From contig NZ_VITI01000003.1 of assembly GCF_007827795.1 (NCBI RefSeq), positions 1-64,000 on the forward strand: DNA of 64,000 nucleotides. Direction: 5' to 3'. The number at the start of each line of letters is the position of its first letter. Position 1 is the stretch's first letter. The translations under genes were made by a program, and so were the position numbers. Source of the stretch: Azospirillum brasilense. Its GTDB lineage: Bacteria; Pseudomonadota; Alphaproteobacteria; Azospirillales; Azospirillaceae. The notes under the pieces were generated by a model. The model was given only the letters and a program-made list of their open reading frames with translations. It was not told where the DNA came from and did not search any database. Of the stretch, positions 12,729-23,345 are shown piece by piece.

Positions 12729-13958
12729 TCAGACGCGGGCGTCTTCGATGACCTTGCCGTCGTTGGGCAGGCTGCCGGGGGCCGCGAACTCCACGACACC
12801 CTTCAATTTGGTGACGGCGGCCAGAGTTTCACGCACCGACGCCGCCAAAGCCTCGCCGGACTCGGGCGACTCGCAGCGCAGGGTCATGGTGTCGTTGGCG
12901 TCCTCACGCCCGACGACGAGGCGGGCCTTGCCGATCTGCGGGTGGCGACGCACCACCTCGGCGATCTGCTGCGGGTGGACGAACATGCCCTTGACCTTGG
13001 TGGTCTGGTCGGCGCGGCCCATCCAGCCCTTCAGCCGCATGTTGGTGCGCCCGCAGGGGCTTTCGCCGGGCAGCACGGCGGAGAGGTCGCCGGTGGCGAA
13101 GCGGACCAGCGGATAGGCCTGGTTGAAGGTGGTGACGACCACCTCCCCCACCTCGCCCTCCGGCACGGGGTCGCCGGTGCCGGGGCGGACGATCTCGACG
13201 ATCACCCCCTCCTCCACCACCAGCCCGGCGCGGGCCGGCGTCTCGTAGGCGACGAGGCCGAGGTCGGCGGTGCCGTAGCTCTGGTAGGCGGCGATGCCGC
13301 GCCCCTCGTAATAGGCGCGGGCGTCGGGCAGGAAGGGACCGCCGGTCAGATGGCCGATCGTGATGGAGGAGAGGTCCAGCCCCAGCTCGTCGCCCTTTTC
13401 CAGGATGATCTTGAGGAAGTCGGGCGTGCCGATGTAGGCCCGTGGCTTCAGATGCGCGGCCACCTGGGCCTGCATCTCCGTGTTGCCGACACCCGCGGGG
13501 ATGACCGCGCAGCCCAGCGCGTGCGCCCCCGTCTCGAACATCGAGCCGGCGGGGGTCAGGTGGTAGGCGAAGCAGTTCTGGACGAGGTCGCCGCCGCGGA
13601 TGCCCGAGGCGTAAAGCGCCCGCGCGGTGCGCCAGGGGTCCGTGCCGTGGGCCTCCGGATCATGGATCGGGCCGGGCGAGGCGAAGACGCGGGCCAGCCG
13701 CCCGATGGCGACGGTGGTCATCCCGCCGAAGGGCGGCGCCTCCTTCTGCAGCGCGATCAGGTCCGACTTGCGGGTGACCGGCAGGGCGGCGAGCGACGCC
13801 CGGTCGCGGACGGCGGCGGGGTCCACATCGGCCAGCAGGCGGGTGAAATAGGGCGCGTTCGCCTTGGCGTGGGCGATCTGCGCCGGCAGCGCCGCGAACA
13901 GCTCCGCCTCGCGCCGGTCGGGGGAGCGGGTTTCGAGTTGATCGTAAGTGTCGGACAC
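12729..13958 (-). CDS. Phenylacetate-CoA-ligase-like protein with degenerate ATP loop (409 aa)
   Basis: Belongs to the PaaK branch of adenylate-forming enzymes. SYGTADLG (adenine/substrate loop), a DLSAVLPG stretch and the C-terminal GWMGRADQTTKVKGMFVHP match PaaK. The P-loop expected as SSGTTGKP reads ASPGPIHDPE (about residues 93-102), so ATP chemistry may be altered. It ends the minus-strand liv transporter operon with a 150-bp REPIN-containing gap after livF. The context suggests handling of an imported aromatic or branched acid, but activity is uncertain. Confidence 0.75.
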   Translation of the reverse strand: MSDTYDQLETRSPDRREAELFAALPAQIAHAKANAPYFTRLLADVDPAAVRDRASLAALPVTRKSDLIALQKEAPPFGGMTTVAIGRLARVFASPGPIHDPEAHGTDPWRTARALYASGIRGGDLVQNCFAYHLTPAGSMFETGAHALGCAVIPAGVGNTEMQAQVAAHLKPRAYIGTPDFLKIILEKGDELGLDLSSITIGHLTGGPFLPDARAYYEGRGIAAYQSYGTADLGLVAYETPARAGLVVEEGVIVEIVRPGTGDPVPEGEVGEVVVTTFNQAYPLVRFATGDLSAVLPGESPCGRTNMRLKGWMGRADQTTKVKGMFVHPQQIAEVVRRHPQIGKARLVVGREDANDTMTLRCESPESGEALAASVRETLAAVTKLKGVVEFAAPGSLPNDGKVIEDARV

Positions 13959-14109: not shown

Positions 14110-14958
14110 TCAAATCCAGCGTTTCCGGCGCTTGAAGCTCTTGAGATTCTTGAAGCTCTTGCGCTCTTCGTTGCCGCCGCCGAGGTAGAATTCCTTCACG
14201 TCCTCGTTGTTGCGCAGCTCTTCGGCGGTGCCGTCCAGAACGACCTTGCCGTTCTCCATGATGTAGCCGCGCGTCGCGGCCTGGAGCGCCATGCGGGCGT
14301 TCTGCTCGACCAGCAGGATGGTGACGCCGAGGTCCTTGTTGATCTGCCGGATGATGCTGAAGACCTCCTTCACCATCAGCGGCGACAGGCCCATGGACGG
14401 CTCGTCCATCAGGATCAGCTTCGGCCGCGCCATCATCGCGCGCCCAATGGCCAGCATCTGCTGCTCGCCGCCCGACAGATAACCGGCCAGACCGGTGCGC
14501 TCCTTCAGGCGGGGGAAATAATGGTAGACCATCTCGATGTCGTCCTTCACGCCGCCGTCGCGGCGGGTGAAGGCGCCGAGGCGCAGATTCTCCTGGCAGG
14601 TCATGTCGCCGATGATGCGGCGGCCCTCCATCACCTGGAAGATGCCGCGCCGGACGATCTTGTCGGGGTCGATGCCGTTGATGCGCTCGCCCGCGAAGGA
14701 GATGTCGCCGCGCGTGACCTCGCCATCCTCGGTCTTGAGCAGGCCGGAGATGGCTTTGAGCGTCGTCGATTTGCCGGCGCCGTTGGCGCCCAGCAGGGCC
14801 ACGATCTCCCCCTCCGGCACTTCCAGGCTGAGGCCGCGGAGCACCAGAATGACGTCGTTGTAGACGACCTCGATGTTGTTGACGGACAGCAGCGGCGCCT
14901 TGGCCGTGCCGGGAACCGGAGCCGGGGCGACCGCAGTCGCGGTGGCGGCGTTCATCAT
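14110..14958 (-). CDS. livF: Branched-chain amino acid-type ABC transporter ATPase LivF (282 aa)
   Basis: ATP-binding subunit of an inner-membrane importer. Walker A is GANGAGKST, the signature motif is LSGGEQQMLAIGRAM and Walker B is LILMDEPSMGL, followed by LLVEQNARMAL with the H-loop position replaced as usual in LivF. About 25 extra basic C-terminal residues (SFKNLKSFKRRKRW) lie beyond the normal LivF end. It follows the binding-protein gene in the livG-fadD-livH-livM-SBP-livF operon. Substrate is unknown; the cluster of CoA ligases argues for an organic acid rather than an amino acid. Confidence 0.93.
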   Translation of the reverse strand: MMNAATATAVAPAPVPGTAKAPLLSVNNIEVVYNDVILVLRGLSLEVPEGEIVALLGANGAGKSTTLKAISGLLKTEDGEVTRGDISFAGERINGIDPDKIVRRGIFQVMEGRRIIGDMTCQENLRLGAFTRRDGGVKDDIEMVYHYFPRLKERTGLAGYLSGGEQQMLAIGRAMMARPKLILMDEPSMGLSPLMVKEVFSIIRQINKDLGVTILLVEQNARMALQAATRGYIMENGKVVLDGTAEELRNNEDVKEFYLGGGNEERKSFKNLKSFKRRKRWI

Positions 14959-15028: not shown

Positions 15029-16312
15029 TTACCAGCCCAGCCACTCCGGCTTGCGCGGGACGTCGACGGTGGCGATCTTCTCCAGCTTGATCGTGCCGGC
15101 CTTCACCAGCTCGTCCACCGAACCGCCGGTGTCGCCGGTCACGTTGGCGCGGTACAGGTTGACCTTGTCCATGCCGCGGTGGTCCGTCTCGGTCCAGGTG
15201 GAGGGCACGCAGACGCCCTCCAGGCCCGCCGGCACCCAATCCTTCTTCTGGTACATGCCCTTGCGTATGTTCGGACCGGTCACGCCGCCGTTCTGCTTCG
15301 CCCAGTCCATGGCTTCCTTCATGTAGAAGGCGGAGCAGATGCCGGACACATAGTGCACCGGACGGTAGGCGGTGCCGGCGGCGTCGGAGATCTTGGAGAT
15401 GTCCTTGACGATCTTCATGCCCGGCGCGTCGCCGCCCCAGATCGCCGCGGTGCGGACCGGGAAGATCACGCCGTTGGCGGCGGAGCCGGCGGCCTTGGCG
15501 GCGTTCTCGTCCATGCCCCAGACGTTGCCCATGAACTGCACCTGGGCGCCGACCGTCTGGCAGGCCTTGAGCACGGAGATGTTCGAGCCCGCGGTGTTGC
15601 CGAGATAGGCGTAGTTGGCGCCCGCCTCCTTCAGCGTCAGGCACTGGGCGGTGTAGTCGCCCGGCGTCAGGGCGAACTGCACCGCCGGCAGCACGTCGAA
15701 GCCCAGCTCCTTGGCGAGCGCCTCACCCGCTTCCTTCGGGGCGTTCGGGTAGGGGTGGTTGGCGCCCATGTGGACGTACTTGGGCTTGCCCGAGCCGCCC
15801 TTCTTCTTCCAGTCGTCCGCCGCCCACATCAGCATGGCGCGCAAGCCGTCGGAGTAGGACGGGCCGTAGAAGAAGTTGTAGGGGGCCGGCTTGGAGCCGT
15901 GCGGACCCTTGCCGGTCGGGTCGGTCAGGTGGCCCGAGTAGGAGCCGGAATAGTAGGGGATCTCGTCCTTGCCGACGAAGCCGGTCAGCGCCTCGGTGTC
16001 GGCGGTGCCCCAGCCTTGGATGGCCGCGACCTTGCCGCTGCCCGACGACCACTTCTTGTACTGGCTGATGGCGCGCGGCGCCTGATAGCCGTAGTCCACC
16101 GTCTCGACGTCCATCTGCGTGCCCGCGACGCCGCCGTTCTTGTTGATGTAGGCGAGCGCGTCGGCGACGCCCTGGCCGAAGGGCACGCCCACGTCCGACG
16201 TGGCGCCGGACTGGTCGGCGAGATGGCCGACCGGGATCTTCTGGGCGTTGGCGGCCCCGGTGCCGAGCAGGACGACGGCGGCGGACGCCAGCAGGACGGT
16301 CTTCATGGTCAT
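15029..16312 (-). CDS. ABC transporter periplasmic substrate-binding protein, LivK type (427 aa)
   Basis: Has a clear Sec signal peptide with a predicted cut after residue 23 (GAANA|Q). The mature protein begins QKIPVGHLADQSGATSDVG, typical of periplasmic-binding-protein type 1 (Leu/Ile/Val-like), and is longer than LivK. Segments such as VETVDYGYQAPRAISQYKKW and GWGTADTEAL resemble the subgroup found next to acyl-CoA synthetases. It captures ligand in the periplasm for the LivHM channel. Substrate cannot be read from sequence. Confidence 0.9.
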   Translation of the reverse strand: MTMKTVLLASAAVVLLGTGAANAQKIPVGHLADQSGATSDVGVPFGQGVADALAYINKNGGVAGTQMDVETVDYGYQAPRAISQYKKWSSGSGKVAAIQGWGTADTEALTGFVGKDEIPYYSGSYSGHLTDPTGKGPHGSKPAPYNFFYGPSYSDGLRAMLMWAADDWKKKGGSGKPKYVHMGANHPYPNAPKEAGEALAKELGFDVLPAVQFALTPGDYTAQCLTLKEAGANYAYLGNTAGSNISVLKACQTVGAQVQFMGNVWGMDENAAKAAGSAANGVIFPVRTAAIWGGDAPGMKIVKDISKISDAAGTAYRPVHYVSGICSAFYMKEAMDWAKQNGGVTGPNIRKGMYQKKDWVPAGLEGVCVPSTWTETDHRGMDKVNLYRANVTGDTGGSVDELVKAGTIKLEKIATVDVPRKPEWLGW

Positions 16313-16367: not shown

Positions 16368-17441
16368 CTAGTGCGAGAACGGGTAGAGCTTCCAGTAGGC
16401 TTTGATCTGCTTCCAGCGGTGGGCCAGCCCGTCCGGCTCGAAGACCAGGAACAGGATGATGACCAGACCGATGGCCATTTCGCGCAGGAAGGCGATCGCG
16501 TCCTTCAGATTCAGCGCGGCGTCGATGGCGGTCCCGGACAGCGCCGTGGTGATGGCCTGCATCACCTCCGGCAGCAGCACCATGAAGGCGGTGCCCATCA
16601 GCGACCCCATGATCGAGCCCAGTCCCCCGATGATGATCATGCCGAGGAACTGGATCGAGAAGAGGATCGTGAAGCCCTCCACCGACACGAACTGTAGATA
16701 GTGGGCGTAGAGCGCGCCGCCGATGCCGGCGTAGAAGGACGAGATGCCGAAGGACATCGTGCGGTACTTGGTCAGGTTGATGCCCATGATCTCCGCGGAG
16801 AGATAATGGTCTCGCACCGCCACCAGCGCCCGCCCGTCGCGGGACCGCATCAGGTTGGTCGCCAGGATGTACATGACGACCACATAGACCAGCACGACGT
16901 AGAAGAAGCTCTCGTCGGTGTCGAAGGCGAAGCCGAACAGGGTGAAGGGCTCCGCGATCGTGCCGGCGGTGCCGCCGGTGAACCAGTCGGCGCGCGAGAA
17001 GAAGTCCTGGAGGATGTACTGCGCCGCCAGGGTGGCGATGGCGAGGTACAGGCCCTTCAGCCGGGCCGCCGGGATGCCGAACAGCATGCCGACCCCCGTG
17101 GTCATCACGCCGGCCAGCGGAATGGCGAGCGCCACCGGGATGCCGAAGCTGTTCGACAGCCACGCCGACGAGAAGGCGCCGAAGCCGAAGAAGGCGGCGT
17201 GGCCGATGGAGATCTGGCCGGTGAAGCCGACCAGGATGTTCAGCCCCAGCGCCGCGATGCCGAGATAGCCGATCTGGATGCACAGGTTCAGCCAGTAGCG
17301 ATCCATGAAGACCGGGCAGAGCAGAAGCAGCGCCACGCCCAGGATCGCGAAGTTGCGGCTGGTCCTGGTCGGGAAGATGGTCGTGTCGGCGGCGTAGCGG
17401 GTCTTGAAGTCGCCGGAGGGGATGAGACTGATGTTCGCCAT
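16368..17441 (-). CDS. livM: Branched-chain-type ABC transporter permease LivM (357 aa)
   Basis: Polytopic inner-membrane protein. Segments such as LNILVGFTGQISIGHAAFFGFGAF and GLYLAIATLAAQYIL are hallmarks of LivM, and a cytoplasmic EAA-like loop precedes the last helices. It pairs with LivH encoded immediately upstream (15-bp gap). The C-terminus ends RWKQIKAYWKLYPFSH. Start at ATG 17439-17441. Confidence 0.93.
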   Translation of the reverse strand: MANISLIPSGDFKTRYAADTTIFPTRTSRNFAILGVALLLLCPVFMDRYWLNLCIQIGYLGIAALGLNILVGFTGQISIGHAAFFGFGAFSSAWLSNSFGIPVALAIPLAGVMTTGVGMLFGIPAARLKGLYLAIATLAAQYILQDFFSRADWFTGGTAGTIAEPFTLFGFAFDTDESFFYVVLVYVVVMYILATNLMRSRDGRALVAVRDHYLSAEIMGINLTKYRTMSFGISSFYAGIGGALYAHYLQFVSVEGFTILFSIQFLGMIIIGGLGSIMGSLMGTAFMVLLPEVMQAITTALSGTAIDAALNLKDAIAFLREMAIGLVIILFLVFEPDGLAHRWKQIKAYWKLYPFSH

Positions 17442-17456: not shown

Positions 17457-18344
17457 TTACACGCGCTCGATGTCCTTGGTGCCGAAGAGGCCGTAGGGCT
17501 TGATCATCAGGATGACGATCAGGACGTAGAAGGGGGCGATCTCGTACATGTTGCCCCAGTTCAGCCACTGGCTGTCGAAGTAGTGGGCCAGATTCTCCAG
17601 CACGCCGACGATCAGCCCGCCCAGAACCGCCCCGGCCACGCTGTCCAGCCCGCCCAGGATGACCGCCGGGAAGACCTTGATGCCGAAGAAGGAGAGCGCG
17701 GAGGACACGCCGTTGACGACGCCGACCGTGACGCCGGCCACCGCCGACACCATGGCGGAGATGGCCCAGCTCATCGCGAACATGTGGCGGACGGAGATGC
17801 CCAGCGACTGCGCCACCTGCTGGTCGAAGGCGGTCGCCCGCATCGCCAGACCCATCCGCGAGTATTTGAAGAACCAGCCGAAGCCCGCCATGATCAGGAT
17901 CGAGATGACCAGGCTCATCACATAGACGGTCTGCACGTCGAGCCCGAGGATGTTCACGGTCGGGCTGGCGAAGATGGTCGGGAAGGGCTTGGCGAAGACG
18001 CCGAACATCCACTTCATCAGCGCCTGGAAGAAGATCGACAGGCCGATGGTGACCATGATGACCGAGATGATCGGCTCGCCGATCATCGGCCGCAGCACGA
18101 CGACCTGAAGCACGATGCCGAAGACCAGCATGAAGGCCAGCGTGATCGGGAAGCCGATCCAGAAGGGCAACTGCCAGGAGGTCAGCAGCCACCAGCAGGT
18201 CCAGGCGCCGATCAGCAGGAACTCGCCCTGGGCGAAGTTCACGATGCGGCTGGCCTTGTAGATCAGCACGAAGGACATCGCCACGACGCCGTACAGCGCG
18301 CCGACGATCAGTCCGTTGACGAGAAGCTGGAAGAACAGGGTCAT
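17457..18344 (-). CDS. livH: Branched-chain-type ABC transporter permease LivH (295 aa)
   Basis: Inner-membrane permease. The N-terminus FFQLLVNGLIVGALYGVVA and the motif ASRIVNFAQGEFLLIGA are characteristic of LivH. VVNGVSSALSFFGIKVFPAVILGGLDSVAGA matches the conserved cytoplasmic loop. ATG 18342-18344 gives the family length; upstream in-frame sequence is REPIN-like DNA. The gap to the preceding CoA ligase contains that repeat, yet all genes stay on one strand and probably form one transcription unit. Confidence 0.93.
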   Translation of the reverse strand: MTLFFQLLVNGLIVGALYGVVAMSFVLIYKASRIVNFAQGEFLLIGAWTCWWLLTSWQLPFWIGFPITLAFMLVFGIVLQVVVLRPMIGEPIISVIMVTIGLSIFFQALMKWMFGVFAKPFPTIFASPTVNILGLDVQTVYVMSLVISILIMAGFGWFFKYSRMGLAMRATAFDQQVAQSLGISVRHMFAMSWAISAMVSAVAGVTVGVVNGVSSALSFFGIKVFPAVILGGLDSVAGAVLGGLIVGVLENLAHYFDSQWLNWGNMYEIAPFYVLIVILMIKPYGLFGTKDIERV

Positions 18345-18361
18345 GGGCGGGTCTCCCCGAA

Positions 18362-18507
18362 ATCCCTCTCCCGTCCCGGGAGAGGGTGGCCGCGAAGCGG
18401 CCGGGTGAGGGTGCATTCAAGGATCGAGAACCAGCCCGTTGCTGGCACCCTCACCCTTCCCGCGCTGTGCGCGGGCCCCTTCCCTCTCCCTGGACGGGAG
18501 AGGGATT
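18362..18507. repeat. REPIN-like inverted repeat, family 3
   Basis: Outer arms CCCTCTCCCGTCCCGGGAGAGG and CCCTCTCCCTGGACGGGAGAGG, inner arms GGGTGAGGGTGC and GCACCCTCACCC, plus GCGCTGTGCGCG. It differs in core from families 1 and 2 but has the same head-to-head design. Lies between livH and the CoA ligase. Confidence 0.8.
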
Positions 18508-18533: not shown

Positions 18534-20480
18534 TCACGCCGCGGCCTGCGCCGGCTTCTTGGCCGGTGCGGGCAGCAGGTCGACCACCTTCAGCACGGTG
18601 CGGATGCGCTGCTTGGTGCCGTCCTGGAAGGTGATGGTGGTGTCCACGTCGATGGCCGGCTGACCCGCGTAGATGGAGTCGATGATCTCGCCGTATTTTT
18701 CGGCGATCACGCCGCGCCGCACCTTGCGGGTGCGGGTCAGCTCGCCGTCGTCGGCGTCCAGTTCCTTGTAGAGCAGCAGGAACTTGGTGATGCGCTGAAA
18801 CTCCGGCAGCGTCGCGTTCACCCGCTCCACCTCCTGGCGCAGCAGTTCGTAGACCTCCGGCTTGGACGCCAGATCGGAATAGGTGGTGAAGGTGATGCGG
18901 TTCTTCTCCGCCCACTTCGACACGATGGGGAAGCGGATGCAGATGATCGCCGACAGGTAGGGCCGCTTGTTGCCCAGGATCACCGCTTCCGCCACATAGG
19001 GGCTGAACTTCAGCTTGTTCTCGATGTATTGCGGGCTGAAGCGGTCGTTGTTGCTGGTGGTGGCGATGTCCTTGATGCGGTCGATGATGACCAGATGGCC
19101 TTTCTTGTCGAAGAAGCCGGCGTCGCCCGTGTGCATCCAGCCGTCGCGCAGGTCCGCCGTGGTCGAGGCCTCGTTGCGGTAGTAGCCGGCGAACATGTTG
19201 GGATGGCTGACCACGATCTCGCCGATGCCGTTCTGGTCGGGCTCGATCACCTTGACCTTGACGCCGTCGTCGAAGGGCACGCCCACCGTGTCGAAATCCA
19301 CGTCGTTCGAGCGGTGCACCGTGTAGGCGCCCATCGTCTCCGTCTGGCCGTAGATCTGGCGCAGCGGCACGCCCAGCGCCTGGAAGAACTTGAAGGTGTC
19401 GGGGCCGAGCGCGGCGCCGCCGGTCGCCGCCGACTTCAGGTTGGTGAAGCCCAGGCGGTCTCGCAGCGCTGCGAAGAGAATGCGGTCGGCGACGGCGGAG
19501 CGGGTTCCGTTGGCGAGCGCCTCCAGCCCCAGCTTCATGCCGTAATCGTACATCTTCTGCTTGAAGGGCGAGGCGTCCATCATGCGGGCGCGCACGTCGG
19601 CGGCGATCTGCTCCCACAGGCGGGGGGCGAACAGCACGAAGCTCGGCCCGATCTCGCGGAAGTCGTTCATCATCGTCTCGGCTTCCTCGACGAAGTTCAC
19701 GCGCATCCGCGACACCATGCCCATGCCGACGGCGTAGATCTGCTCCATGATCCAGGACAGCGGCAGCACCGACACATACTCGTCCGCCGGCCCCTTGGGG
19801 TCCACCGACAGGTAGCTGGCGACGTGGCGGATCAGCCGCCCGGCCGGCAGCATCGCCAGCTTCGGGTTCGAGGTGGTGCCCGACGTGGTGCAGAGCACCG
19901 CCACGTCGTCGCCGCGCGTCGCGCCGACCAGTTCCTCGTAGAGGTTCGGCTTCTCGGCGTGCAGCGCGTTGCCCAGCTTGACCAGCTCCGACGCCTCCAT
20001 CAGGCGCGGGTCGCTGTATTTGCGCATCCCGCGGGGGTCGGAATAGATGATGTGCTTCAGCGTCGGCAGGCGCTCGCCCAGGTTCAACAGCTTGTCGACC
20101 TGCTCCTCGTCCTCCGCGAAGATGACGTGAACGTCGGCGTAGGTGATGAGGTAGGCGACCTCCTCGTCCATGGCGTCGCGGTAGATGCCCAGGCTCATCG
20201 CGCCCATGGCGTGGGCGGAGATTTCCCCCATCACCCAGTCGGGCCGGTTGTCGCCCAGCAGGGCCACCACATGGCCGCGCTCCACGCCCAGCTTGATGAG
20301 GCCGAGCGTGAAGGCGCGCACGCGGGCGTGCATGTCCGCCCAGGTGAACTCGCGCCAGATGCCGAAGTCCTTCTCGCGCATGGCGACCTCGCCGCCATGC
20401 TCACGGGCGTGCAGGGTCAGCAGCTTCGGCAGCGTGTCGTGAGTCTTGATATCGGGCAACGTCAGATCGGGAACAGACAT
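18534..20480 (-). CDS. Long-chain-type acyl-CoA synthetase (AMP-forming, 648 aa)
   Basis: Adenylate-forming enzyme of the FadD15/plant-LACS-like group. The intact P-loop CTTSGTTSNPK (about residues 196-206), the YGQTETMG motif and DGWMHTGDAG followed by IDRIKDI show an active ligase core. A basic C-terminal lysine region (RKVRRGVIAEKYGEI) is present. It converts an acid to its CoA thioester using ATP. Its ATG overlaps the livG stop by one base (TGATG), so uptake and activation are coupled. A GTG one codon upstream is an alternative start. Confidence 0.9.
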   Translation of the reverse strand: MSVPDLTLPDIKTHDTLPKLLTLHAREHGGEVAMREKDFGIWREFTWADMHARVRAFTLGLIKLGVERGHVVALLGDNRPDWVMGEISAHAMGAMSLGIYRDAMDEEVAYLITYADVHVIFAEDEEQVDKLLNLGERLPTLKHIIYSDPRGMRKYSDPRLMEASELVKLGNALHAEKPNLYEELVGATRGDDVAVLCTTSGTTSNPKLAMLPAGRLIRHVASYLSVDPKGPADEYVSVLPLSWIMEQIYAVGMGMVSRMRVNFVEEAETMMNDFREIGPSFVLFAPRLWEQIAADVRARMMDASPFKQKMYDYGMKLGLEALANGTRSAVADRILFAALRDRLGFTNLKSAATGGAALGPDTFKFFQALGVPLRQIYGQTETMGAYTVHRSNDVDFDTVGVPFDDGVKVKVIEPDQNGIGEIVVSHPNMFAGYYRNEASTTADLRDGWMHTGDAGFFDKKGHLVIIDRIKDIATTSNNDRFSPQYIENKLKFSPYVAEAVILGNKRPYLSAIICIRFPIVSKWAEKNRITFTTYSDLASKPEVYELLRQEVERVNATLPEFQRITKFLLLYKELDADDGELTRTRKVRRGVIAEKYGEIIDSIYAGQPAIDVDTTITFQDGTKQRIRTVLKVVDLLPAPAKKPAQAAA

Positions 20481-21367
20481 CACGCGACCTCCTGCTTGGG
20501 CGGCGGGGCCACGGCCTCGGCCTCGTCGTCGTCCTCGCCGAGATAAGCGCGACGAACGCGCGGGTCGGCCAGAACCTCCTCGGGTGTGCCCTCGGCGATC
20601 TTCTTGCCGAACTCCAGAACGATCACGCGGTGGGAGATGTCCATCACGACGCCCATGTCGTGCTCGATCATCACCACCGTCATGCCGAACTCCTCGTTCA
20701 GGTCGACGATGTAGCGGGCCATGTCCTCCTTCTCCTCCAGGTTCATGCCCGCCATGGGCTCGTCCAGGAGGATCAGGTCGGGCTTCAGCGCGATGGCGCG
20801 GGCCAGCTCCACCCGCTTGCGCAGGCCGTAGGAGAGCGTGCCGGCGGTGGCCTTGCGGACATGCTGGATTTCCAGGAAGTCGATGATCTCCTCGACCTCG
20901 CGGCGGTGGGCCAACTCCTCCTTGCGCGCGCCGGTCAGCCAGTAGAGCGACCCGGTGAAGAAGTTGTTCTTCAGCAGGTGGTGCCGCCCGACCATGATGT
21001 TGTCGAGCACCGTCATGTGGCCGAACAGCGCCAGATTCTGGAAGGTGCGCCCGATGCCGAGCGAGGCCCGGTGGTTGGGCGTCATGCCCGTGATGTCCTT
21101 GCCCTTGAAATAGACCTTTCCGTCGGTGGGCCGGTAGCGGCCGGAGATGCAGTTGACCATGGAGGTCTTGCCCGCACCGTTCGGGCCGATGATGGAGAAC
21201 AGCTCCCCCTTGCGGATGCTGAAACCGACGTCGGTCAGCGCCTGCACGCCGCCAAAGCGCAAGGACACGCCCCGGGCTTCGAAGATGGTGTCCGATGGGG
21301 AGGCCGCGCGGGTGGCGTCGGCCGGATGGGCGTAACCGCGTGGCGATGCGACGGGCGCGCCTGACAT
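20480..21367 (-). CDS. livG: Branched-chain-type ABC transporter ATPase LivG (295 aa)
   Basis: First gene of the minus-strand transporter operon. Walker A is GPNGAGKTS, followed by the LivG-typical RTFQNLALFGHMTVLDNIM and long insert. The signature is LSYGLRKRVELARA and Walker B LILLDEPMAGMN, with IEHDMGVVMDISHRVIVL supplying the H-loop histidine. The first 25 residues are an extra low-complexity leader; an internal start is possible. Its promoter region holds the first 17-bp palindrome assigned to the divergent regulator. Confidence 0.92.
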   Translation of the reverse strand: MSGAPVASPRGYAHPADATRAASPSDTIFEARGVSLRFGGVQALTDVGFSIRKGELFSIIGPNGAGKTSMVNCISGRYRPTDGKVYFKGKDITGMTPNHRASLGIGRTFQNLALFGHMTVLDNIMVGRHHLLKNNFFTGSLYWLTGARKEELAHRREVEEIIDFLEIQHVRKATAGTLSYGLRKRVELARAIALKPDLILLDEPMAGMNLEEKEDMARYIVDLNEEFGMTVVMIEHDMGVVMDISHRVIVLEFGKKIAEGTPEEVLADPRVRRAYLGEDDDEAEAVAPPPKQEVA

Positions 21368-21431
21368 TTCCTCCTCCGTTGCTGTGGAACTGCCTTTTTT
21401 ATCGTTCGCCGGACTGTTCGTGCGGCGAACT

Positions 21432-21448
21432 GGTCCATATTGTGGACC
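21432..21448. promoter_or_regulatory. Operator-like palindrome O1 in livG promoter
   Basis: GGTCCATATTGTGGACC, a 17-bp near-perfect palindrome (arms match at 7 of 8 positions), 65-81 bp upstream of livG. It repeats almost exactly at 21548-21564, with centres 116 bp apart. Confidence 0.75.
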
Positions 21449-21547
21449 GTCCTTTATGCAACGACCGAACTATAACCCGTGATGCGCACGGTTTTCAACA
21501 CGGACATTCCGTGTATGCATGTTTTTTGGAGCGACATCCGGCCGCAA

Positions 21548-21564
21548 GGTCCATAATATGGACC
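21548..21564. promoter_or_regulatory. Operator-like palindrome O2 over the regulator start codon
   Basis: GGTCCATAATATGGACC, a perfect 17-bp palindrome with one central base. It covers part of the AAGG ribosome-binding site and the ATG at 21558, so binding here should repress the regulator's own gene. Confidence 0.75.
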
Positions 21565-23222
21565 CCATCATGACCCGGCCCGATTCCGACACCGAAACCA
21601 CCCCCACTGGAGCGTCCGGCGGCACACAGAGCCTGGAGCGCGCCTTGGCGTTGCTGCGCGCCGTTGCGTCCCATGGGGCGGAGGGCGCGCGGCTGGCCGA
21701 CCTGATGGGCGACACCGCCCTGTCCAAGGCGACCGCGCACCGGCTGCTGACCGCGCTGGCGCGGGAACGCTTCATCGACCAGGACCCGCGCAGCCGCCGC
21801 TACCATCTGGGACCGGAGCTGGATTCGCTGGGCCGCATCGCCGCCACCCGCCACCGTGCCGAAAGCGACAGCGCGGTGCCCGGCCCGGCCACCGTTCAGC
21901 CCACCGCCTTCCTCCGCCCGGACTATCAAGGTGACGCGATCCCGCTCGCCGATCTCCTGTGTGACCGTCACGCCCGCGCCGACGGCGCCCGCGCCGCCCT
22001 GCTGCACGAGAGCGTGGCCGGCCAGACGACGGAGCTGAGCTTCGCCCGGCTGGCCCGCGATTCGGCGCGCTTCGCCGCGGTGCTGCGCGGCCTCGGCGTC
22101 GGGCGCGGCGACCGGGTGGCGGTGCTGCTGCCCAAGGGGGCGGAGCTGCTGATCGCCGCCCTGGCGATCTGGCGGCTCGGCGGAGTCTACATGCCGCTCT
22201 TCACCACCTACTCCGCCGCCGCGGTCGCCTACCGGCTGGCCGACAGCGAGGCGCGGGCGATCGTCACCACCGGCTTCCTGCGCCGCAAGATTCCGCGCGA
22301 CAACAGCCGCCCCCTGGTGATGGTGGAGGGCGACGAGGCCTTCGGTCCCGGCGCCGACGCGGTGCCCTTCTGGTCGGCGCTTCATGAATCGGCCCCCTTG
22401 CCCGACATCGCCCGCTACGCCGACCGCGACGCCTTCGCGCTGATCTACACCTCGGAAGCCGAACCGAAGCCGCTCGGCGTCTCGCTGCCCGTCATGGCGC
22501 TGGCCGGGATCGAGCAGTACATGCGCATCGGCCTCGACCTGCGCGACGACGACATCTACTGGAACATGGCCGATCCCGGCTGGGCCTACGGCGCCTATTA
22601 CGGGCTGGTCGGGCCGCTGCTGCTCGGGCGCACCACGATCTTCTGCGACGGCCCCTACGACGTGCGACAGGGCTACCGCATGCTGACGAAGTTCGGCGTC
22701 ACCAACCTGACCTGCGCGCCGTCCCAGATCCGCGCCTGGCACAGCGCCGACCCGGAGGGCGGCCCGCACAAGCTGGCCCTGCGCATCCTGTCGGTGGTCG
22801 GCGAACCGCTGCCGCCGGAGTTGATCGGCTGGGCCAATCGGGTGGTCAGCGTCCCCCTGCTCGACCAGTACGGGCAGCGCGAGACCGGCATCTTCATGAT
22901 GAACCGCTACGACCCCGGCCACGCCGACCGCACCGCCGATTCCTCGCTGGGACGGCCATTGCCGGGCTTCCGCGTGGTCATCCTCGACCCGCAGGGCCGC
23001 GAGGCACCGGTCGGCGGCGCGGGCGAGATCGCCATCGACGTGGACTCCTCGCCGCTCTTCTGGTTCGACGCCTACGCCAACGATCCGACGCGCACCGCCG
23101 CCCGCTTCCGCCACGGCCGCCGCTATTACCTGACCGGCGACTGGGCGTTCCTGGACGGCGACGGCAACATCCACTTCCGCGGCCGGGCGTCCGACGCCAT
23201 CGTCATGCAGCAGGCGGATTGA
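21558..23222 (+). CDS. IclR-type helix-turn-helix fused to truncated acyl-CoA-synthetase domain (554 aa)
   Basis: Residues about 24-90 are an IclR winged helix (SLERALALLRAVASHG, then SKATAHRLLTALARERFI and RRYHLGPEL). Instead of the usual IclR effector domain, residues about 125-554 resemble the large domain of medium-chain acyl-CoA synthetases, including NMADPGWAYGAYYGLVGPL, YGQRETG (about 438) and YLTGDWAF (about 523). The ATP P-loop is broken (YTSEAEPKPLGV, about 297-308). The protein ends just after the hinge motif GRASDAIV, so the C-terminal lid with the catalytic lysine is missing. It is probably an acid or acyl-CoA sensor controlling the divergent liv/CoA-ligase operon. Start: ATG 21558 with AAGG eight bases upstream; ATG 21570 and ATG 21519 are alternatives. 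Confidence 0.85.
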   Translation: MDPIMTRPDSDTETTPTGASGGTQSLERALALLRAVASHGAEGARLADLMGDTALSKATAHRLLTALARERFIDQDPRSRRYHLGPELDSLGRIAATRHRAESDSAVPGPATVQPTAFLRPDYQGDAIPLADLLCDRHARADGARAALLHESVAGQTTELSFARLARDSARFAAVLRGLGVGRGDRVAVLLPKGAELLIAALAIWRLGGVYMPLFTTYSAAAVAYRLADSEARAIVTTGFLRRKIPRDNSRPLVMVEGDEAFGPGADAVPFWSALHESAPLPDIARYADRDAFALIYTSEAEPKPLGVSLPVMALAGIEQYMRIGLDLRDDDIYWNMADPGWAYGAYYGLVGPLLLGRTTIFCDGPYDVRQGYRMLTKFGVTNLTCAPSQIRAWHSADPEGGPHKLALRILSVVGEPLPPELIGWANRVVSVPLLDQYGQRETGIFMMNRYDPGHADRTADSSLGRPLPGFRVVILDPQGREAPVGGAGEIAIDVDSSPLFWFDAYANDPTRTAARFRHGRRYYLTGDWAFLDGDGNIHFRGRASDAIVMQQAD

Positions 23223-23234
23223 GGAGCGGCGTTT

Positions 23235-23334
23235 GCCCCCACCCCGGCCCTCCCCCGCTGGGCGGGGAGGGGGATTATAGCGAAGCGACGGCAGTTCCCT
23301 CCCCCGCCCAGCGGGGGAGGGTTAGGGTGGGGGC
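23235..23334. repeat. REPIN-like inverted repeat, family 1
   Basis: A 100-bp element starting GCCCCCACCCCGGCCC and ending GGGTTAGGGTGGGGGC, located between the convergent stops of the fusion regulator and mmsB, where it could also help end transcription from both sides. Confidence 0.85.
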
Positions 23335-23345
23335 AATGTTCGCCC

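What the first reader, a model, noticed from the sequence alone, without database searches (positions are those of the whole stretch)
21558..23222. Candidate new one-component sensor: IclR DNA-binding domain fused to a catalytically broken acyl-CoA-synthetase domain
The protein starts with an ordinary IclR winged helix, but the IclR effector domain is replaced by the large domain of a medium-chain acyl-CoA synthetase. The ATP loop is destroyed (TSEAEPKPLG instead of TSGTTGxPKG) and the chain stops at the hinge, so the lid domain and catalytic lysine are absent. Acid- and nucleotide-pocket segments such as YGQRETG and YLTGDW remain. An enzyme pocket seems to have been turned into a ligand sensor controlling a divergent transporter and CoA-ligase operon. 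I do not recall a characterised regulator of this design.
Basis: partly seen in the sequence, partly recalled or inferred. Interest (0 to 1): 0.85.

Follow-up and report, generated by a model that had tools for sequence, protein, structure and literature searches.

The report
Dead enzyme became a gene switch
This Azospirillum gene encodes an IclR-type DNA-binding domain joined to an acyl-CoA synthetase domain that has lost its ATP loop and its catalytic lid; it lies back to back with a transporter and CoA-ligase operon that it likely represses until an acid predicted to enter by that transporter fills the old enzyme pocket, and its relatives likely record how an enzyme turned, in steps, into a gene switch.

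Summary
ORF 21558-23222 (554 aa) is one uninterrupted fusion: IclR winged helix, no IclR effector domain, then an acyl-CoA synthetase large domain with a destroyed ATP loop, ending at the hinge. Matches occur in 42 of 45 genomes of the genus, under strong purifying selection (dN/dS 0.03-0.16 in the synthetase domain, 8 comparisons). It is divergent from a liv-type ABC transporter/ligase operon in 26 of 26 loci. Two 17-bp palindromes, 116-118 bp apart, occupy the shared intergenic region; they are missing in 7 of 7 operon loci without the regulator. Relatives add a series: none of 84 fusions has the canonical ATP loop (the closest keeps 7 of 9 motif residues), while 86 of 86 non-fused homologues, two fragments set aside, do. 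One branch keeps the lid with a partly eroded loop; the other has lost the lid. The tree needs one gain of the HTH and one loss of the lid. Acyl and adenosine pockets are retained, so I infer a repressor released by the imported acid (with AMP, or as its adenylate). Ligand and sign of regulation are untested. The principle has a precedent (BzdR), but my searches listed no DNA-binding regulator with an acyl-CoA-synthetase fold: a new variant of a known kind.

The parts
21558..23222 (+). IclR-HTH / pseudo-acyl-CoA-synthetase fusion gene (554 aa; alternative start 21570)
21630..21788 (+). IclR winged helix-turn-helix, residues 25-77
   Evidence: Pfam PF09339, 43.4 bits; confident in the model
21813..21866 (+). 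predicted linker helix, residues 86-103 (its second half has low confidence); residues 87-118 are the fast-evolving linker
   Evidence: predicted structure; dN/dS 0.25-0.90
21912..23192 (+). acyl-CoA-synthetase large domain, residues 119-545
22446..22478 (+). destroyed ATP loop YTSEAEPKPLG, residues 297-307
22869..22889 (+). retained adenine/acyl segment YGQRETG (residues 438-444), with Arg441 where enzymes have Thr
23127..23141 (+). retained ribose-contact segment YLTGD (residues 524-528; Asp528 invariant in the 81 aligned proteins)
23181..23219 (+). degenerate hinge at which the chain ends; no lid and no catalytic lysine follow
21432..21448 (.). operator-like palindrome O1 GGTCCATATTGTGGACC, about 20 bases downstream of the predicted liv promoter
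21548..21564 (.). operator-like palindrome O2 GGTCCATAATATGGACC, overlapping the start of the regulator gene
21469..21498 (-). predicted sigma-70-type promoter of the liv operon (TTGAAA-18-TATAGT)
   Evidence: 1 found; mean 0.0 in 50 shuffles
20480..21367 (-). livG-type ABC ATPase, first gene of the divergent operon
18534..20483 (-). AMP-binding CoA ligase (649 aa) with loop TSGTTSNPK and AMP-binding_C_3 domain
17457..18416 (-). livH-type permease (name given by its place in the operon)
16368..17441 (-). livM-type permease (name given by its place in the operon)
15029..16312 (-). solute-binding protein (427 aa; weak match to a branched-chain amino acid binding protein model)
14110..14958 (-). 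livF-type ABC ATPase (name given by its place in the operon)
12729..13958 (-). PaaK-like AMP-binding protein (409 aa)

Best explanation
The protein is an IclR winged helix fused to an acyl-CoA synthetase domain that lacks its ATP loop and lid, and it likely works as a local repressor whose old acyl/adenosine pocket would bind the acid predicted to be imported by the divergent transporter, releasing the DNA. Shown: the fusion, the loss of ATP loop, hinge and lid, the retained acyl- and adenosine-pocket residues, purifying selection, the shared divergent operon, the paired palindromes and their absence where the gene is absent. Inferred: a dimer, through the winged helix and linker helix, binds O1 and O2. 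These lie 116-118 bp apart, close to eleven helical turns, so a loop is possible. O1 sits just after the predicted liv promoter and O2 at the regulator's own start, so binding would repress both. The acid (with AMP, or as its adenylate) would enter the retained pocket; the bond-making chemistry should not follow, because the ATP loop is gone, so binding would act only as a signal that moves the HTH pair off the DNA. Transporter, CoA ligase and regulator would then be made.
For: Regulator: HTH_IclR in as many members (61) as there are fusions in the 81-sequence alignment; both palindromes at 3 mismatches or fewer in 25 of 26 Azospirillum/Arenibaculum loci with upstream sequence (the 26th, L034, has one such site and a second at 4 mismatches), 116-118 bp apart; a like pair, 138 bp apart, in the lid-bearing MAG locus with a different neighbour (0 of 200 shuffles reach the count); 0 of 7 operon loci without the regulator have a site at 2 mismatches or fewer near livG. 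Repression: the predicted liv promoter lies about 20 bases upstream of O1. Dead enzyme: canonical loop absent in 84 of 84 fusions. Pocket kept: in the Azospirillum-type rows, positions aligned with Acs W309, V310, T311, G387, E388, D411, W413, W414, E417 and D500 have the enzyme group's commonest residue in 21 of 21, and R515 in 19 of 21. Working protein: dN/dS 0.03-0.16 in the synthetase domain in 8 of 8 comparisons with the window. Dedicated target: livG to livF in the same order in 26 of 26 loci, the other flank in only 9 of them (L009-L017).
Against: No binding or expression data. The pocket is not simply the enzyme's: at Acs Thr416 this clade has Arg, and at V386 it has Val in 21 of 21 where the enzymes have Ala in 19 of 20. 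Retained residues could be kept for folding. The operon persists in 10 of 53 genomes without the regulator, so it does not need it. In the Xanthobacter-type rows some pocket residues differ (Asp411 to Asn, Val310 to Glu in 11 of 11), so the ligand may differ or be lost there. A few further genes may be regulated: of 13 other genomic places at 1-2 mismatches, 3 lie outside ORFs of 150 aa or more and 1 overlaps a possible start codon. With 3 mismatches allowed, 4 of 100 shuffles of the window reach its number of palindrome hits, though the real sites have 0 mismatches. Activation instead of repression is not excluded.
Confidence: 0.55

Rival explanations
1. Same repressor, but the ligand is the acyl-CoA product of the pathway rather than the acid or adenylate.
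For: CoA esters are known inducers of catabolic operons, as for BzdR with benzoyl-CoA (PMC3602430). Arg242 and Lys244, conserved in the enzymes, are kept in 81% and 100% of the Azospirillum-type rows; whether they contact CoA is not known.
Against: The lid and gate residues that help hold CoA in Acs (positions 523, 526, 584; roles recalled) are changed or absent in the Azospirillum-type rows, while adenosine-contact positions are kept.
Confidence: 0.2
2. It is an activator, or a dual regulator, of the liv operon instead of a repressor.
For: IclR-type regulators include activators (recalled). A conserved element between the palindromes is not fully explained.
Against: O1 lies downstream of the predicted liv promoter and O2 overlaps the regulator's own start, a layout that suits repression.
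Confidence: 0.15
3. The synthetase domain is only a dimerisation scaffold or bulky tail and senses nothing.
For: No ligand is known; the canonical ATP loop is missing in every fusion seen.
Against: Acyl- and adenosine-contact positions stay fixed while the linker evolves freely; the lidless rows share a pocket change, Thr to Arg441 (29 of 32).
Confidence: 0.08
4. Pseudogene, assembly error or chance read-through of two genes.
For: One genome, Azospirillum sp. B506, shows an internal stop (L028; G030 has the same contig coordinates, so it is counted once).
Against: 42 of 45 genus genomes match; dN/dS is far below 1 in both domains; the 61 fusions in the tree are separated from the enzymes with full support.
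Confidence: 0.01
5. A bifunctional protein that still makes acyl-AMP or acyl-CoA.
For: Most pocket residues remain. Lid-bearing relatives keep part of the machinery: P0122 has 7 of 9 loop residues, the catalytic lysine is present in 17 of 29, and 11 of 31 keep PxTxxGK, so activity is not excluded for them.
Against: In this protein the loop is destroyed (TSEAEPKPLG) and lid and catalytic lysine are absent.
Confidence: 0.02

Closest known systems
BzdR (XRE-type HTH plus inactive shikimate-kinase-like domain; benzoyl-CoA sensor)
   Same: DNA-binding domain fused to a former enzyme; loss of catalysis goes with regulation; controls a catabolic operon (PMC3602430: abstract and concluding section read).
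   Different: Other HTH family and other enzyme fold; there intermediates were made in the laboratory, here a lid-bearing branch with an eroded loop exists in nature.
IclR family regulators
   Same: Winged helix; palindromes next to a divergent target (family habit recalled).
   Different: The IclR effector domain is replaced by a synthetase domain.
AMP-forming acyl-CoA synthetases (ANL superfamily), e.g. Brucella canis 5u2a and Salmonella Acs
   Same: Fold, acyl pocket and adenosine-contact residues.
   Different: No ATP loop, hinge, lid or catalytic lysine; a DNA-binding domain at the front.
MocR/GabR, ROK repressors and FapR (recalled, not looked up)
   Same: Sensor domains derived from enzyme folds.
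   Different: Aminotransferase, kinase and hotdog folds, not a CoA-synthetase fold.

Membership tests
IclR family | IclR-type winged HTH | tested here: met
   PF09339, 43.4 bits against cut-off 22; 61 members of the 81-row alignment match, as many as it has fusions
IclR family | IclR C-terminal effector domain | tested here: not met
   No such domain listed at E <= 0.001; the region is AMP-binding
IclR family | Binds a palindromic operator near a divergently transcribed target | tested here: inconclusive
   Conserved palindromes present; binding not tested
AMP-forming acyl-CoA synthetase | Large-domain fold | tested here: met
AMP-forming acyl-CoA synthetase | ATP loop TSGTTGxPKG | tested here: not met
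   TSEAEPKPLG; 0 of 84 fusions have the canonical loop
AMP-forming acyl-CoA synthetase | C-terminal lid with catalytic lysine | tested here: not met
   Chain ends at the hinge and PF13193 is not found; in the 81-row alignment 49 members match PF13193, as many as it has enzymes (20) plus lid-bearing fusions (29)
AMP-forming acyl-CoA synthetase | Catalytic activity | not testable with these tools
   Needs protein
BzdR-type enzyme-derived regulator | XRE HTH plus shikimate-kinase-like domain | tested here: not met
   IclR HTH plus AMP-binding domain
BzdR-type enzyme-derived regulator | Ligand-dependent release from operator DNA | not testable with these tools
   Needs protein and DNA

The most novel reading that the evidence does not exclude
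A natural family of one-component transcription factors in which the acyl-adenylate pocket of an acyl-CoA synthetase has become the sensor, with the order of events still readable in living relatives: fusion to an IclR winged helix and erosion of the ATP loop first, loss of the lid later, then a new arginine in the pocket that tunes it from catalysis to ligand sensing.
Probability: 0.6. Interest if true: 0.82.

Novelty: new variant of a known kind. Interest (0 to 1): 0.72.

Why it matters
Acyl-CoA synthetases are a widespread enzyme fold whose pockets accept many acids (recalled). A natural example of that pocket wired to a DNA-binding domain would be a new class of acid sensor, with a defined operator pair and a defined target operon, useful for biosensors. 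The living series (enzyme; lid-bearing fusion with an eroded loop; lidless fusion) makes the question 'how does an enzyme become a regulator, and which activity is lost first' testable on natural proteins. For BzdR the intermediates had to be built (PMC3602430). It also means that some proteins now labelled 'acetyl-CoA synthetase' or 'AMP-binding protein' (names) are likely misannotated regulators.

Tried and rejected
Rejected: pseudogene or fusion artefact; a large regulon (besides the two palindromes, 13 other places in the genome match with 1-2 mismatches, only one of them with 1; I read all 13 neighbourhoods for mechanical ORFs of 150 aa or more: 10 lie inside such an ORF, among them the 1-mismatch site; C2:388317, C1:638252 and C7:154040 do not, and C1:248052 overlaps a possible start codon of an ORF of about 500 aa or more; a few extra targets are therefore not excluded); the right flank mmsB/acd/gntR/malonyl-CoA synthetase as the target (found in 9 of 26 loci with the regulator); a still-working synthetase in this clade.

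Led nowhere: gene context of the Xanthobacter-type clade. Two class-level samples (385 and 388 genomes) returned at E <= 1e-100 only genomes of the window's genus and the MAG G355, so that clade's operator and target are unknown. In the family of G355, 1 of 39 genomes (G355 itself) has a lid-bearing fusion, so that branch is sporadic and its context rests on one locus. Mutant-fitness literature gave no substrate for the operon (listing; passages of PMC9007349 only, no mention of Azospirillum in its main text). Arg191 and Arg194 of Acs fall in gaps of my alignment even for the enzyme group, so CoA-site conservation could not be judged there. Literature searches for a described IclR/acyl-CoA-synthetase or ANL-fold regulator showed none in their listings; searches found no paper, searches listed 20 of 161 and 20 of 5,923, and most subscription papers are not in that library. 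The structure comparison speaks for the synthetase part only, since the listed matches span residues 113-553; the HTH rests on Pfam and the prediction. No dimer was modelled.

Full report

NOT AN ARTEFACT. In 82 genomes of the order, 43 match at E <= 1e-80: 42 of 45 in the window's genus (the window's own included) and 1 in a second genus; 0 of the other 36. In 5 of the 43 rows (G024, G026, G034, G041, G045) the listed match starts at residue 104-108, so those rows do not show the HTH. One genome, the draft of Azospirillum sp. B506, has an internal stop (L028; it is the same contig position as G030). In 8 comparisons with the window (8 of 15 orthologues loaded) dN/dS is 0.03-0.16 for the synthetase domain and 0-0.26 for the HTH, but 0.25-0.90 for the linker 87-118. 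The changed loop itself (14 codons, so a rough figure) gives 0-0.21. The comparisons share one sequence and are not independent. The former enzyme domain is thus under strong selection although its loop is gone.

FAMILY AND ORDER OF EVENTS. Among 172 homologues of at least 450 aa from two searches, each listing its best 120, 84 carry the HTH, the window's protein included; none has the canonical ATP loop, strict or loosely defined. Of the other 88, 86 have it loosely defined (81 strictly), and the remaining 2 are fragments of Azospirillum fusions. Scored on nine motif residues, the 86 have 7-9; the 78 fusions that could be scored have 1-7, and 6 had gaps or an insertion. The closest fusion is the lid-bearing P0122 (TSGRPGAPKG, 7 of 9), so erosion is graded and that branch is not clearly dead in every member. 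A third search, started from the closest non-fused enzyme P0070, listed three fusions, all known already, in its best 120 of 6,014; of its 50 new proteins 46 have the loose loop and 4 read TSGTEGNPKG. So no fusion with a canonical loop was seen, within capped lists. Of the 84 fusions, 31 are 600 aa or longer and 53 are shorter, two of the latter apparently cut before the hinge. In the 81-row alignment, AMP-binding_C matches 49 members, as many as it has enzymes (20) plus lid-bearing fusions (29). In those 29 the catalytic lysine is present in 17; 11 of the 31 long fusions keep PxTxxGK. A maximum-likelihood tree of the synthetase domain, with HTH, loop and lid columns left out, separates the 20 enzymes from the 61 fusions (100/99) and unites the 32 lidless fusions (100/100). 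HTH and lid each need one change. Whether the lid-bearing fusions form one clade is weakly supported (53/17), and several enzyme branches are long. Read from the enzyme side: one fusion, erosion of the loop in all fusions seen, and one later loss of the lid. Separate decay of the loop in the two branches is not excluded. The Xanthobacter-type sequences nest inside the Azospirillum-type ones (97/86).

WHICH PARTS OF THE SITE SURVIVE. I numbered the alignment by Salmonella Acs (sequence; roles of residues recalled, though V386, R194, R584 and K609 appear in entry titles). In the 21 Azospirillum-type rows the positions of W309, V310 (Ala in this subfamily), T311 (Tyr), G387, E388, D411, W413 (Tyr), W414 (Gly), E417 and D500 have the enzyme group's commonest residue in 21 of 21, and R515 in 19 of 21. 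The loop positions 266-268 and 272, the hinge position 517 and the gate positions 523, 524 and 526 are changed, while loop positions 264, 265 and 271 are mostly kept. Against a simple copy of the enzyme pocket, V386 is Val in 21 of 21 where the enzymes have Ala in 19 of 20. The phosphate-contact Thr416 is Thr in 19 of 20 enzymes, Ala in 22 of 29 lid fusions, and Arg in 18 of 21 Azospirillum-type and 11 of 11 Xanthobacter-type rows (Arg441 here). Of 147 positions conserved in at least 90% of the enzymes, 115 keep the enzyme residue in at least 80% of the Azospirillum-type rows, against 95 in lid fusions and 90 in the Xanthobacter type. All fusion groups share C363-D364-G365 and Q371, each found in under 30% of the enzymes. 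My reading (inference): the acyl and adenosine parts of the pocket are kept, while ATP-phosphate chemistry and the CoA half-reaction are discarded.

OPERATORS AND TARGET. Two palindromes, GGTCCATATTGTGGACC (21432-21448) and GGTCCATAATATGGACC (21548-21564), lie in the intergenic region with 0 mismatches to the pattern drawn from them; at 3 mismatches allowed, 4 of 100 shuffles of the window reach the number of hits. In the whole genome at up to 2 mismatches there are 13 other places, one of them with 1 mismatch and inside an ORF; 3 lie outside ORFs of 150 aa or more and 1 overlaps a possible start codon. The pattern read backwards gives 3 hits against 21. Of 26 related loci with upstream sequence, 25 have both sites at 3 mismatches or fewer, 116-117 bp apart; the 26th (Arenibaculum, L034) has one such site and a second at 4 mismatches, 118 bp apart. 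All 26 have the divergent genes livG-ligase-livH-livM-solute-binding protein-livF, and 25 of them also show part of the following PaaK-like gene, at the end of the fetched stretch. The right flank is shared by 9 of the 26 (L009-L017). In the lid-bearing MAG locus (L074; its contig has the length given for P0060, labelled a Rhodospirillales MAG) a like pair occurs 138 bp apart, each with 2 mismatches (0 of 200 shuffles reach the count), but the divergent neighbour is a tannase/feruloyl esterase, with an NMT1-type ABC transporter downstream. Ten of 53 genomes with the solute-binding protein lack the regulator. I read 7 of these 10: none has a site at 2 mismatches or fewer near livG, and one has a site at 3. 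In two of them (G014, G029) livG directly follows mmsB on the same strand. The one promoter-like site found in 21300-21650 points to livG and ends about 20 bases before O1.

MECHANISM. Shown: architecture, destroyed loop, missing lid, selection, shared operon, paired palindromes. Inferred: dimer binding to both palindromes, repression of both promoters, and release by the imported acid held in the acyl/adenosine pocket (with AMP or as adenylate). 116-118 bp is close to 11 helical turns and 138 bp to 13, so looping is possible but untested. I prefer acid or adenylate over acyl-CoA because adenosine-contact positions are kept while the lid and gate are gone. This is the least secure step.

COMPARISON AND NOVELTY. 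BzdR is the best precedent for an enzyme turned sensor: HTH plus shikimate-kinase-like domain, benzoyl-CoA as effector, and loss of catalysis described as essential (PMC3602430; abstract and concluding section read). The present family uses a different HTH and a different fold, and natural intermediates exist. It fails a defining feature of the IclR family (effector domain) and of acyl-CoA synthetases (loop, lid), so it is filed under neither. Eight literature searches listed no described regulator of this design in the open-access library searched; two of them showed only the top of long lists. Verdict: a real, conserved, new variant of the enzyme-derived one-component regulator; ligand and sign of regulation await experiment.

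Noticed in passing
window 21490-21532; alignment A2: A strongly conserved element between the two palindromes (GTTWTCAACAC-GACATTCCG...GCATGTTTTTT in most of the 16 aligned sequences) is only partly explained by the -35 of the liv promoter; it may be the regulator's own promoter or a further binding site.
   Followed up: partly
L088 (G014) and L089 (G029): In two genomes of the genus without the regulator, mmsB is followed directly by livG on the same strand, so the regulator and its palindromes look like a removable cassette between a 3-hydroxyisobutyrate dehydrogenase gene and the transporter operon.
   Followed up: partly
window residue 441 (22878-22880): Thr416 of Acs is replaced by Arg in 29 of 32 lidless fusions and by Ala in 22 of 29 lid-bearing ones: a clade-specific change in the heart of the pocket.
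   Followed up: partly
window residues 363-371; alignment A1: A signature C-D-G and a following Gln shared by all three fusion groups and rare in the enzymes; its role is unknown.
   Followed up: no
window 23233-23336: A 40-nt inverted repeat (88% complementary, 24 nt between the arms) lies between the regulator gene and mmsB, possibly a bidirectional terminator or a mobile palindromic element.
   Followed up: no
L074 7221-15327: The lid-bearing homologue in the MAG faces a tannase/feruloyl esterase gene and is followed by an NMT1-type ABC transporter and an amidase gene, which may point to aromatic acids as ligands in that clade.
   Followed up: partly
L028 (Azospirillum sp. B506; the same place as G030:C477:13638): One genome has an internal stop in the regulator gene; real loss or sequencing error was not resolved.
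   Followed up: partly
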